Of a stretch of DNA of 64,000 nucleotides, positions 53,345 to 57,845 are shown piece after piece; within the stretch, counting starts at the first letter, position 1, and each line of letters starts with the position of its first letter. The position numbers were made by a program, and so were the translations under genes. The notes below the pieces were generated by a model that was given only the letters and a program-made list of their open reading frames with translations, made no database searches and had not been told where the DNA came from. The stretch comes from Mycobacterium pseudokansasii (GTDB taxonomy: Bacteria > Actinomycetota > Actinomycetes > Mycobacteriales > Mycobacteriaceae): positions 4,402,325-4,466,324 of the forward strand of contig NZ_UPHU01000001.1 of NCBI RefSeq assembly GCF_900566075.1, given 5' to 3'.

Positions 53345-53811
53345 GTGAGCGCATCACCTGCAGTTGCCTTGGCTATGTCGGTTGGCGAGCGTGAAACGTT
53401 GGAGAGGTTGGCGCGGTCTCATGCGGTGCCGCATCGGCAGGTGATGCGCGCGCGGGCGTTGCTGATGGCTGCCGATGGCGTGGCGAACACCCGCATCGCC
53501 GAGGAGGTCGGGGTGACGCCGGTGACGGTGCGTAGCTGGCGCAAAAGGTTCAGCGAGGACGGGCTGGCCAAGCTGGGGCAGGTACGTAAGGGACGAGGCC
53601 GCAAGCCCACGATCTCAGACGAGCAGGTCGCGCAGATCGTGCGATTGACCACCGAGGAGACCCCGCCCGGCCACACGCATTGGTCATGCCGCACGATGGG
53701 CACCCGGGTGGGAGTGAGTCACTCTGCGGTGCAACGTATCTGGTCCGATTTAGGGATCAAGCCGCATCGAGTGGACACGTTCAAGGTGTCCACCGATCCG
53801 AAGTTCGAGGA
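53345..53811 (+). pseudogene. IS630 transposase, N-terminal half
   Basis: This half carries the DNA-binding part. It has a helix-turn-helix in RALLMAADGVANTRIAEEVG and VTPVTVRSWRKRF, a basic RKGRGRKPTISDEQ linker, and a second helix-turn-helix in GTRVGVSHSAVQRIWSD. The coding frame breaks inside the codon after TDPKFE at 53811. Joined directly to 57218, the frame continues without change, giving a 364-residue transposase. Confidence 0.88.
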
Positions 53812-53815
53812 TTCT

Positions 53816-53825
53816 CCGGCTAATC
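53816..53825 (+). repeat. Left subterminal repeat of Tn554-like transposon
   Basis: CCGGCTAATC here is inverted at 57199-57208, and similarity extends inward a few bases (TTG.TT versus CTG.TT). It contains the tnpC stop codon. It is probably a recombinase-binding site. Confidence 0.7.
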
Positions 53826-54143
53826 TTGCTTCTGGCTCCGCCGCGGGGTAGCGGTTCGGCGTTTGAGCGTGCGGAGTTCTTCTTCTTGTCGGCGAACTTT
53901 GGCGGCGACGGCATCGAGGGCTTGGGTGAGGTTGTCGAGGCGGTCGGCGAGTCCGGTGATGGTGAGCATTTCGCCGTGGCGGGATCGGTAGGTGTCGATG
54001 ACGGCGCGGAGTTGCCGGTTGCGGTAGCAAGTGGCGCGGCTGATGCCGCTGTGCTCGGCGACGGCGGCGAAGGTGACATCGCGTCCGGCGGCGAGCAGTT
54101 GTTCGCAGGCGCTGCGGACGCGGTCAGTCGGGTTGTCGCTCAT
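53820..54143 (-). CDS. tnpC: TnpC-like accessory protein (DUF6262)
   Basis: The 107-residue protein starts MSDNPTDRVRSACEQLLAAG and has a helix-turn-helix-like segment (VTFAAVAEHSGISRATCYRN). A long coiled-coil helix follows (GLADRLDNLTQALDAVAAKV and on), then a basic tail. Size and place fit TnpC of Tn554, which affects the orientation or efficiency of insertion. Its ATG would overlap the ancestral tnpB stop as ATGA (54140-54143). Its own stop lies inside the terminal repeat. Confidence 0.83.
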   Translation of the reverse strand: MSDNPTDRVRSACEQLLAAGRDVTFAAVAEHSGISRATCYRNRQLRAVIDTYRSRHGEMLTITGLADRLDNLTQALDAVAAKVRRQEEELRTLKRRTATPRRSQKQD

Positions 54144-56112
54144 CGTGTTTCGGCCCGGGTTTGGCTGATCAGCTCATCAAGGCGGTCGGCGAGGCGGCGG
54201 TGGCGTTCGGCTTCGGCGCCCCAGCCGCGTGTTTCGGCGTCCGCGGCCAGGGTGAGCGCGTCGGCGTGTTGGGCGCCGAGGACGGCGAGGTAGCCGGCGT
54301 CGGTGCGGAAGTTCGGGCAGTGCTCGCAGATGTTGGCATAGGAACAGGATCCCTGAGCTGGGGCGCGTAGGCAGACCCGCCGGCCAGGCGTGATTTGATG
54401 GTGGCAGTGTCCTTCCAGTCGGCGCCGCCGGTGATCGCCACGAGCGGTAGCGGCCGACCGGATGCCGGTGGCGAGCCGGGCGGTGCGGGCGGTGCGGCTG
54501 GTGCCGTGGCGAGGTGTGCTTTGGTCTGGGTCAAAGCGCGTTCGTACTCTTCGCGCACGGTGGCGTCGAACAGCCGCCCGTATCGAAGACTCATGTTCGC
54601 CGAGACGTCCCGAGTAGTTGCATCAGCGCCTGCAGCGAGCAGCCCGCGTTCACCAGGGCCGTGGCGAAGGTGTGTCTGAGGGAATGCGTTGTGGCCGTGG
54701 TGATTTCGGCGATCTTGGCAGGCGCGGGAAAGCTCTTCCCGCAGCGCGCAGGCGGAGATGCGTCGGCCTTGATGCACCAGCAGGAAGTCGACCGGTGCGC
54801 CGGTGCGGGGGTGCGGCAGCGGCCGGCCGGGGGTGCGGCGGGCGACGATCCGGTCGAGGATCGTCACGGTCTCGTCGTCGAGCGGGACCATCCGTTCGGT
54901 TGCGAGCTTGCCCAGCGGCACTTTCAGCCAGGCGCCGTTTCCGTCGATCTGGTGCACGCAGTCCAGTTCCAGGTCGCGCAGTTCGCCGATGCGCAGCCCG
55001 GTGGCGCGGGTCAGCAGCAGCGCGTCGGCGTGCAGCCGCGTCAACCCGGCCGGCGCGGACCCGGACAGGTCGGTGAGCGCGGCCAGCAGCGCCCGGTCGG
55101 CGTCGGGAGGCAGATAGCGCGTCAGCGGGTGCTGCAAGCGCGGAAGGTCCCGGGAGAAGATCAGGATGCGGGCCGGTGCGGCGGGCCAGCCCCACTCGGT
55201 GATGTCGGTGAGGAACTGCCGTACGGCGATGATCCGGCCGCGGCGGTAGCCGATGGACATGGGGCTGCCGTCGCGCAGTCGGGCGGCGGCCAGCGCCGCG
55301 AGCCACGCCTCGATGGTGGCGCGGTCGAGCACGGCGAGGTCGGTGACCGGCGGGTCGCAGGCGGACAGAAACCGGCCGAAGCCGGCCAGGTGGCCCGCAA
55401 TCGCTTTGACCGTGGTCGGTGCCCGCGTTGAGGCGGCCTGCGTGCAGTAGTCCATGAATACGGTGCGCAGAGGTTCGTCCACGCCGCTGCAGCACCCGCG
55501 CAGGCCTGGCCGGCACCGCGGGTCCGGTGGAGGCGTGTCGAGGATGCCGAGGTGGAACAGCACCCGGTGCGCCGTGCTGATCATGGCGCGGTCGGCGTTC
55601 CAGGCGGCGGGTTTGCCGTTGATCTGGGTGCGTCGGTGCAGCGCCGCGGCCAGCTCGTCGAGGTCGGCGGCGCGCAGCTGAGCCAGTGGCCGGCCGGTCT
55701 GGGTGAGCAGCCGGACGATGACGCGTTCGGTGGCGCAGCGCACGGTGTGGGCACTGTAATCCAGCTCGGTCGCCGCGGTGGTGAACGCGGTGATCTCGGC
55801 GGCCAGCGGGCCGCGGCCAGCCTGGGTGAGCAGCCCGCCGATCTTGCGGCTCAGGTAGTCATAGCCGGGCCGTAGCCGCCCGGTGGCCATCAGGTAGGTG
55901 ACGAACGGCCGTTGCGCCACGCCCAAACTCTGCTGCACGTCGAGGGTTTCCGCGGCGAATGCGGCCGGGTCGAGCCAGCGCGCGAGGAACGACCACGCCG
56001 CGTTGCGGTAGGACAGCGACCCGCGCTTGTCCACGGCCAGCCACGCCTCGTAGTCGGCGACCAGCTCGGCCGCGCCGGGCACGTGCGCTGCGCGCCGTTC
56101 AGGCCCGGGCAC
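54140..56112 (-). pseudogene. tnpB: TnpB-like tyrosine recombinase with three single-base indels
   Basis: The GTG at 56112 overlaps the tnpA end. The start VPGPERRAAHVPGAAELVAD leads into a core-binding domain, then the catalytic arginine in ATGLRIGELRDLELD and the lysine in VPLGKLATERMV. Between about 54717 (extra G) and 54608 (missing G) the frame is displaced. In the correct frame this part reads HSLRHTFATALVNAGC, then QALMQLLG, the HxxR-H box, and it returns to SANMSLRYGRLFD with the nucleophile tyrosine. A third missing base near 54376 hides a Cys-rich tail (CSYANICEHCPNF). Corrected, the gene ends at 54140. Confidence 0.82.
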
Positions 56113-57119: not shown

Positions 57120-57198
57120 GAGACACGTATCCCACACACACATCGAGCAGCCCGGGAACCACACCCACTACGGCGTGTCGGGCCCTGGAAGCAAACAG

Positions 57199-57208
57199 GA
57201 TTAGCCGG
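57199..57208 (-). repeat. Right subterminal repeat of Tn554-like transposon
   Basis: GATTAGCCGG is the inverse of 53816-53825. It lies five bases further from the junction than the left copy. Confidence 0.7.
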
Positions 57209-57217
57209 TAAAGGAGA

Positions 57218-57845
57218 CAAGCTTGTCGATGTCGTCGGTTTGTACCTCAACCCGCCGGACAAGGCGATCGTGTTGTGCATGGATGACAAGAGCCAGATTC
57301 AGGCTCTCGACCGTACCCAGGCGTCGGTGCCAATGATCCCCGGTCGAGCCGGAACGATGACCCATGACTACAAGCGCAACGGGACGACCACGTTGTTCGC
57401 GGCACTTGACGTATTGACCGGCACGGTGATCGGTCAATGCCTGCCTCATCACCGTCATACCGAGTTCCTGAAGTTTCTCAACACGATCGACCACGAGGTG
57501 CCCCAGGGCCTGCAGGTCCCTCTGATCCTGGATAACTACAGCACCCACAAGCACGCCGAGGTCGACCGGTGGCTCAACCGGCACAAGCGTTTTCACCTGC
57601 ACTTCACGCCGACCTCATCGTCGTGGCTCAACCAGGTCGAGCGCTGGTTTCGGGATCTGACCGACAAGAATCTGCGTCGCGGGGTATTCGCCAGCGTGCC
57701 CGATCTGATCGCCAGCATCGAGGAATACCTCAACGCCCACAACGCCGATCCCACCCCCTACGTGTGGACGGCCACCGCCGAATCCATCCTGGCCAAAGTC
57801 CAGCGAGCACGCACTAAACTCGAACAAGTAGTTAGCCAAAACTGA
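57218..57845 (+). pseudogene. IS630 transposase, C-terminal half
   Basis: This half holds the whole DDE catalytic domain: VLCMDDKSQIQALDRTQ (first Asp), LILDNYSTHKHAEVDRWL (second Asp) and TSSSWLNQVERWFRDLTDK (Glu). The frame begins with the last base of the codon broken at 53811 and ends with TGA next to the right end repeat. All motifs are intact, so the only lesion is the transposon insertion. Confidence 0.88.

What the first reader, a model, noticed from the sequence alone, without database searches (positions are those of the whole stretch)
53345..57845. Tn554-like transposon nested in an IS630 copy, with exact reconstruction of the host gene
The two halves of an IS630 transposase lie 3.4 kb apart. 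Removing 53812-57217 joins codon GA|C in frame and yields a 364-codon protein with the HTH and all DDE residues. The inserted unit has two tyrosine recombinases and a DUF6262 protein in tnpA-tnpB-tnpC order, as in Tn554, with no cargo. This shows the insertion order and that the IS was intact at that time. Such cargo-free, Tn554-type units in mycobacteria are little described.
Basis: partly seen in the sequence, partly recalled or inferred. Interest (0 to 1): 0.8.

Follow-up and report, generated by a model that had tools for sequence, protein, structure and literature searches.

The report
Transposons that home into transposase genes
A small jumping element sits inside the transposase gene of another jumping element, and most of its relatives that could be read do the same, usually at a fixed distance from the catalytic site of quite different transposases, so one selfish DNA seems to live by breaking others.

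Summary
The unit carries tnpA, tnpB and tnpC (DUF6262), no cargo, and is of Tn554 type.

The wider result is the target. Of 80 named relatives 62 have a readable flank: 58 read as DDE transposase genes, 1 borders a CTP synthase-like gene, 3 are unresolved. Of 47 with a tnpC-side flank, 44 sit seven codons before the presumed catalytic Glu, though targets average 47% nucleotide identity. Others sit at IS256, IS1634 and IS3-orfA motifs. A Tn554-family element sits in radC. Van Houdt 2012 listed such elements but left attachment sites open. The novelty is the target rule, not the window copy.

The parts
53298..53811 (+). Left piece of IS630 transposase gene (HTH part; ORF starts 53345) with left IS end
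53812..57217 (-). Tn554-type unit, 3406 bp (boundaries ambiguous by 2 nt), inserted antisense to the IS630 gene
53816..53825 (.). Terminal inverted repeat CCGGCTAATC, tnpC side
57199..57208 (.). Terminal inverted repeat GATTAGCCGG, tnpA side
53820..54143 (-). tnpC-like gene, DUF6262, 107 aa
   Evidence: Pfam 2.5e-8; 23% to Tn554-family TnpC
54155..56226 (-). tnpB, large tyrosine recombinase; frame change near 54373 and out-of-frame HxLRHT...LGH stretch
56105..57119 (-). tnpA, tyrosine recombinase; frame change near 56677-56682, and about 20 residues short against relatives
57218..57857 (+). Right piece of IS630 transposase gene (DDE_3 domain) with right IS end

Best explanation
The unit is a decayed member of an actinobacterial branch of Tn554-type transposons whose tyrosine recombinases (TnpA, TnpB, with TnpC) integrate at short DNA sites that code for conserved motifs of DDE transposases. 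Shown by sequence: ends, junctions, gene content, and target identity and register in most readable relatives, with different clades at different targets. Inferred: TnpA and TnpB bind the CCGGC inverted end repeats, exchange strands at a short core that resembles the target codon (CC in elements at Pro codons, T-S-C in elements at Ser/Cys codons), and insert without target duplication, splitting the transposase gene; TnpC sets orientation, as reported for Tn554. The window copy inserted antisense into an IS630 gene upstream of its first catalytic Asp (that residue named from recall). tnpA and tnpB are now broken, and a piece of the IS630::unit composite lies in a PPE gene. I regard the targeting as selfish use of an abundant, dispensable, conserved gene class rather than a service to the host.
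For: Junction from natural uninterrupted copies. Of 80 named loci (best 80 of 116), 47 have at least 30 nt of tnpC-side flank: 43 have Glu at codon 8 in frame. After reading all frames two of these (L101, L105) were chance; 41 stand, L071 and L095 are 1 nt off, L110 fits at its second end motif: 44 of 47. The other three read as antisense in IS3 orfA (L101, by eye), IS481 (L105, 9.5e-14) and IS1634 (L072, 1.2e-7). Fifteen more loci have a tnpA-side flank only: 11 read as transposase. Glu8 is the only nearly invariant column of 41 flank pieces. Targets of the 41 average 47% nt identity; Pro-type against Ser/Cys-type 38%. Flank families: IS3, IS481, IS21, IS30. Control: of 31 ORFs at least 2 kb outside the elements 2 are transposases among the families listed. 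Fifteen of 15 Mycobacterium loci read, and every plasmid locus with ends found (6 of 7 and 8 of 10 loci), lie in IS3- or IS256-type genes. On the TnpA tree the 12 IS256_E rows and the 4 IS256_QRC rows are each one clade. The row nearest the window, L066, is antisense in IS1634.
Against: No transposition was observed. L081 is a counter-example: its tnpA-side flank is antisense to a CTP synthase-like gene (3.5e-7). L115, L117 and L127 are unresolved. In L091 and L136 only the tnpC side reads as transposase; the tnpA side gave no family. The window's own site is not a Glu motif, its IS630 target is a single case, and its place on the tree is unsure (long branch; pairing with L066 98/73, not starred). 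The 80 loci were picked by TnpA similarity, and 33 of them had no usable tnpC-side flank. The per-locus readings are mostly mine by eye; the family scans give tallies only. No nucleotide sequence common to all targets was found beyond GA of the Glu codon and a few bases near the core, so recognition is unexplained.
Confidence: 0.85

Rival explanations
1. The units insert widely, and those in IS elements survive because IS genes are dispensable (insertion with survivorship, no target specificity).
For: Transposase genes are dispensable (recalled); distal ORFs of the same loci include 2 transposases of 31; L081 borders a CTP synthase-like gene.
Against: Survival alone does not fix the position to the codon: 44 of 47 at the same distance from the Glu codon (two of them 1 nt off) in targets with 47% mean identity, and IS256-type targets each belong to one clade.
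Confidence: 0.05
2. An ordinary chance nesting: a Tn554-like element happened to land in one IS630 copy, with nothing general behind it.
For: The window site (IS630, antisense, not the Glu motif) differs from the commonest target; I know one such copy.
Against: L066 and L072, in the same 26-row group of the tree, are antisense in IS1634 genes around the DTTSTYFE motif; 58 of 62 readable relatives are in transposase genes.
Confidence: 0.06
3. The units are kept by hosts as agents that silence insertion sequences (anti-IS defence).
For: Each such insertion splits a transposase gene, mostly near its catalytic codons.
Against: Units are patchily distributed (9 of 348 genomes of the order, own included, at E<=1e-60), sometimes multicopy, and decay, as selfish DNA does. 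In G471 the IS3::unit composite exists in two nearly identical copies, so nesting need not stop the IS.
Confidence: 0.08

Closest known systems
Tn554 family (Staphylococcus/Enterococcus), compared here through L192, E. faecium plasmid pHMC8C-1-optrA; the record does not print the name Tn554, I assign it from gene content (recall)
   Same: tnpA-tnpB-tnpC order and homologous proteins: TnpA of L048 26%, E 9e-31; TnpB of L048 27%, E 6e-37; window TnpC 23%, E 4e-7
   Different: L192 carries erm(A) and ant(9) and lies between two JAB/RadC gene parts (Pfam RadC 3.7e-20); in the present units I see no cargo, and they lie mostly in transposase genes
Tn554-like tnpAB(C) elements of Actinobacteria (Van Houdt et al. 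2012, PMC3414803; one section and search passages read)
   Same: Same kind; its table lists pBD2 and pREL1, from which L185 and L189 come
   Different: [quoted passage not shown] it names no transposase target for them
RIT elements (recombinase in trio)
   Same: About 3.5 kb, tyrosine recombinases; one RIT type lies in the transposase gene of a Tn6049-related transposon (passages read)
   Different: Three recombinases instead of two plus DUF6262
SE and GInt elements
   Same: Tyrosine recombinases plus a TnpC-like protein, selected insertion sites (passages read)
   Different: Four recombination genes, and other targets (GInts preferentially at the end of ssb)

Membership tests
Tn554-type transposon | tnpA, tnpB, tnpC in this order, two tyrosine recombinases plus DUF6262 | tested here: met
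Tn554-type transposon | Homology of the three proteins to a Tn554-family element | tested here: met
   TnpA and TnpB of relative L048; TnpC of the window; TnpB alignment that includes the window's
Tn554-type transposon | Recombinase active-site motifs in frame | tested here: not met
   Aligned relatives have them; the window copy has frame changes
Tn554-type transposon | Insertion without target duplication | tested here: met
   Natural empty site against window: only 2 nt ambiguous
Tn554-type transposon | Target in radC | tested here: not met
   Window in IS630; relatives mostly in transposase genes; L192 in radC. Hence 'Tn554-type', not Tn554 itself
Tn554-type transposon | Circular intermediate and 6-bp footprint | not testable with these tools
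   needs an assay
RIT element | Three tyrosine recombinases | tested here: not met
   third protein is DUF6262
IS630 (host element) | IS630-type HTH and DDE_3 transposase | tested here: met
   on the two pieces apart
IS630 (host element) | Inverted ends flanked by TA | tested here: inconclusive
   TGGTGTGTC at both ends; TA at the right end only

The most novel reading that the evidence does not exclude
The actinobacterial Tn554-type radiation is a guild of transposase hunters: separate clades have each come to recognise the DNA of a different conserved transposase motif (Glu motif of IS3/IS481/IS21/IS30, Glu and QRCxxHxxR motifs of IS256, first-Asp motif of IS1634, DPxFE motif of IS630, orfA end of IS3) and spread by breaking other mobile elements, sometimes riding on them as composites.
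Probability: 0.7. Interest if true: 0.85.

Novelty: new variant of a known kind. Interest (0 to 1): 0.75.

Why it matters
It answers a question left open in print (where multicopy actinobacterial Tn554-like elements attach) with a rule that can be tested at once. It points to a tyrosine-recombinase element family specialised on the catalytic-motif codons of other transposons' transposases, much as inteins and introns favour conserved coding sites (recalled comparison). It predicts which IS copies get broken, gives exact attachment sites for a recombinase family, and raises a sharp mechanistic question: how recombinases keep one register on targets that share under half of their bases.

Tried and rejected
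Plasmid megablast with the window stretch gave 3 records covering 3% of the query, and phage blastn with the unit gave none. A shared nucleotide consensus for all targets was sought and not found beyond a few bases. My first count of 43 of 47 included two chance hits (L101, L105), withdrawn after reading all frames. The tree used labels of that earlier stage: L101 and L105 are mislabelled there, 40 of 118 rows are 'unknown', and L133 came out beside the IS256_QRC rows, which I take to be another ORF of that locus (not checked). With unknown rows counted as others, the tool's table gives 16 changes for Ser/Cys-type and 9 for Pro-type, so only the two IS256 groups are one clade each by that table. 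L167-L169 gave no ends by motif; L167 was then read as an element behind 'ELRRANEIL' of IS3 orfA. Flanks of loci L038-L056 were read by eye, two also scanned (L051, L052), and are not in the counts. One of 63 loci printed (L100) is an artefact of my script and was dropped, leaving 62; L090 and L093 may be one site in two MAGs. Literature: ten searches in an open-licence PMC library; in the listings and in the passages read of four papers I found none on transposase-gene targeting by Tn554-like elements; most subscription papers are not held there.

Full report
What is in the window. The genome is 6.43 Mb in 2 contigs, 100% complete by the tool's estimate, and belongs to the genus Mycobacterium in the GTDB sense: same-genus locus L048 (G216, contig of 5951 bp) gives the same TnpA as L057, M. 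angelicum (contig of 5951 bp). Between 53298 and about 57857 lies an IS630-family element whose transposase gene is in two pieces, 53345-53811 and 57218 onward. The 3406 bp between them carry, on the minus strand, tnpA, tnpB and a DUF6262 gene, with no cargo ORF that I can see. The unit has inverted ends CCGGCTAATC / GATTAGCCGG and lies antisense to the IS630 gene.

Is the junction right? I searched the left half in 396 same-genus genomes: 13, own included, match at E<=1e-30; 14 loci outside the window's genome were fetched, two further matches were not. In 12 of the 14 loci (11 genomes) the two halves lie directly next to each other; L147 is partial and out of register, and L151 matches on the left only.

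The unit is decayed. tblastn with intact relatives puts a frame change in tnpA at about 56677-56682 and one in tnpB near 54373. The alignment of tnpB shows a further out-of-frame stretch where relatives have HxLRHT...LGH. Window tnpA is about 20 residues shorter than relatives over the aligned N-terminal part (17 and 21 by the two queries). Sequencing error is not excluded, but the tnpA site is identical in the second locus L002.

Second locus. L002 (G000:C1:5253153-5254146) holds window 56673-57666 with 1 difference in 994. It starts at an inverted repeat inside tnpA. The identity stops just where L002 reads CACCACTAG, which resembles the IS630 terminus, and the piece lies at the end of an ORF with a PPE domain (3.4e-57; ORF). 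So a piece of the composite, not of the IS alone, was copied; by transposition or by recombination cannot be told.

Relatives. Long matches to same-genus units are 65-72% identical in DNA; 22 of the 395 other genomes searched match at E<=1e-60. Many have open tnpA (about 380 aa), tnpB (about 665 aa) and tnpC; some are broken. Draft genomes often hold them as contigs of one unit length (3395-3418 bp), as collapsed multicopy repeats would. In 348 genomes of the order 9, own included, have TnpA at E<=1e-60. Homology to a Tn554-family element is clear for the proteins compared.

Targets, first set. A scan with the TnpA alignment found 116 relatives and kept 80. Ends were called by motif in 62 (tnpA side) and 59 (tnpC side), and set by eye in five loci. 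Forty-seven loci have at least 30 nt beyond the tnpC-side end. Reading from the fifth base, 43 of 47 have Glu as codon 8. Reading every flank I withdrew L101 and L105, leaving 41 with a clear DDE Glu motif such as C-F-D-N-A-A-A-E-S-F-F, P-W-Q-R-G-S-N-E-N-T-N-G or P-Q-G-R-G-K-Q-E-R-L-N (that this is the catalytic Glu is recalled from the families). L071 and L095 fit with a 1-nt shift, and L110 fits at its second end motif: 44 of 47. L072 is antisense in IS1634 (1.2e-7), L105 antisense in IS481 (9.5e-14), and L101 antisense in an IS3 orfA by eye. Thus on the tnpC side all 47 read as transposase genes. In L091 and L136 the tnpA side does not (no family).

Fifteen further loci have only a tnpA-side flank: 11 read as transposase (L062, L070, L079, L087, L113, L114, L128, L131, L135; L075 1 nt off; L068 antisense, weakly IS3, 0.043). 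L081 is antisense to a CTP synthase-like gene (3.5e-7), a counter-example, and L115, L117 (Ns) and L127 are unresolved. Together 58 of 62.

Scans and control. Of 41 tnpC-side pieces, rve_3 29, rve_2 24, Mu-transpos_C_2 5, Mu-transpos_C 2; IS3 29, IS481 22, IS21 9, IS30 2; counts overlap. Of 50 tnpA-side pieces, rve 33, IS3 26, IS481 24, IS21 4, IS30 4. Control: the longest ORF in each stretch at least 2 kb outside the element, 31 ORFs from the 18 loci tried; 2 transposase families with one member each appear among the 25 families listed of 57 (Pfam) and of 188 (NCBIfam). Glu8 is the only nearly invariant column in the 41 pieces. The 45-nt targets of the 41 loci (38 distinct peptides, 1 of 820 pairs at 90% or more) average 47% identity, so most are independent insertions into different genes.

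Targets, other sets. In 15 further Mycobacterium loci (L165, L166, L172-L184) every end examined reads as a transposase gene: L174-L181 and L184 at the IS256 motif NNP..ERLNKEI, L165, L166, L182 and L183 at IS256 QRCxxHxxR, and L172 and L173, one site copied, at an IS3 Glu motif; three pieces were checked by Pfam (Transposase_mut). L178 and L179 have opposite orientations. L170 and L171 of the same fetch were not examined. Plasmid loci were picked by me from the two lists of hits: first batch, 6 of 7 had ends and all 6 fit; second batch, 8 of 10 had ends and all 8 fit; L195 repeats the site of L185, and L197 was readable on one side. L189 and L201, a lineage without an annotated tnpC, were bounded against each other and read as antisense at the end of IS3 orfA in two different IS copies. 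L202 stayed unresolved.

Phylogeny. In a TnpA tree of 118 rows the IS256_E rows (12) and the IS256_QRC rows (4) are each one starred clade. A 57-row clade (95/88) holds 37 of 38 Ser/Cys-type rows, 20 unknown and no Pro-type; 21 of 22 Pro-type rows lie in a 39-row group (94/90, not starred) with the window (see Tried and rejected for mislabelled rows). The window's nearest row is L066, a Nitriliruptoraceae MAG (98/73, window branch long), whose unit sits antisense in an IS1634 gene (4e-21) next to DTTSTYFE. So specificity largely follows the recombinase and changes between clades. The element's tnpA-side end has CC at -10/-9 in 13 of 13 Pro-type and T at -10 in 23 of 24 Ser/Cys-type elements, like the codon at the insertion point (CC in 13 of 13 and T in 20 of 28), as a recombination core would.

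What is new. Van Houdt 2012 (one section read) described such elements in mycobacteria and left their attB sites open. One RIT type in a Tn6049-like transposase gene is the nearest precedent I saw (passages). My ten searches found no report of the rule described here, in an open-licence library only.

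Noticed in passing
L138:2110-2700 (same-genus genome G158): The uninterrupted IS630 copy lies beside an array of 37-nt repeats (GTTCCGATCCTCGGCGCCGAGCAAAGCCCGGCGCCGC) with differing spacers, CRISPR-like (read by eye).
   Followed up: no
L167:1915-6217 and L168 (genome G471): A 4.3-kb IS3::unit composite exists twice, 99.9% identical, at different sites, with matching ends TGA..CCTGGATYTGCTGSAGGCTC: the composite seems to move as one.
   Followed up: partly
window 56674-56691: Perfect 8-nt inverted repeat GCCGTTGC-CC-GCAACGGC at both the tnpA frame change and the breakpoint of the second locus L002.
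   Followed up: partly
window 49930-51351: Adjacent minus-strand ORFs (49930-50433, 50503-51351) look like one transposase gene split by a frame change; family not tested.
   Followed up: no
L197:5636-7183 (M. gilvum Spyr1 plasmid): An IS1182-like ISMgi3 copy is annotated between tnpA and tnpB of a unit: nesting in the other direction.
   Followed up: no
L202:4426-8592 (Nocardioides sp. QY071 plasmid pCHL): Distant recombinase pair followed by TetR and two SMR transporter genes: perhaps a related element with cargo.
   Followed up: no
L061 and L046: A 6259-bp contig titled as an Acidobacteria MAG has a unit whose TnpA is identical to that of M. austroafricanum (L060). A contig of the same length (G368:C124) is filed under the window's genus, so the title may be a misnomer.
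   Followed up: partly
L081:1606-1755: The one relative whose flank is not a transposase: antisense to a CTP synthase-like gene.
   Followed up: partly
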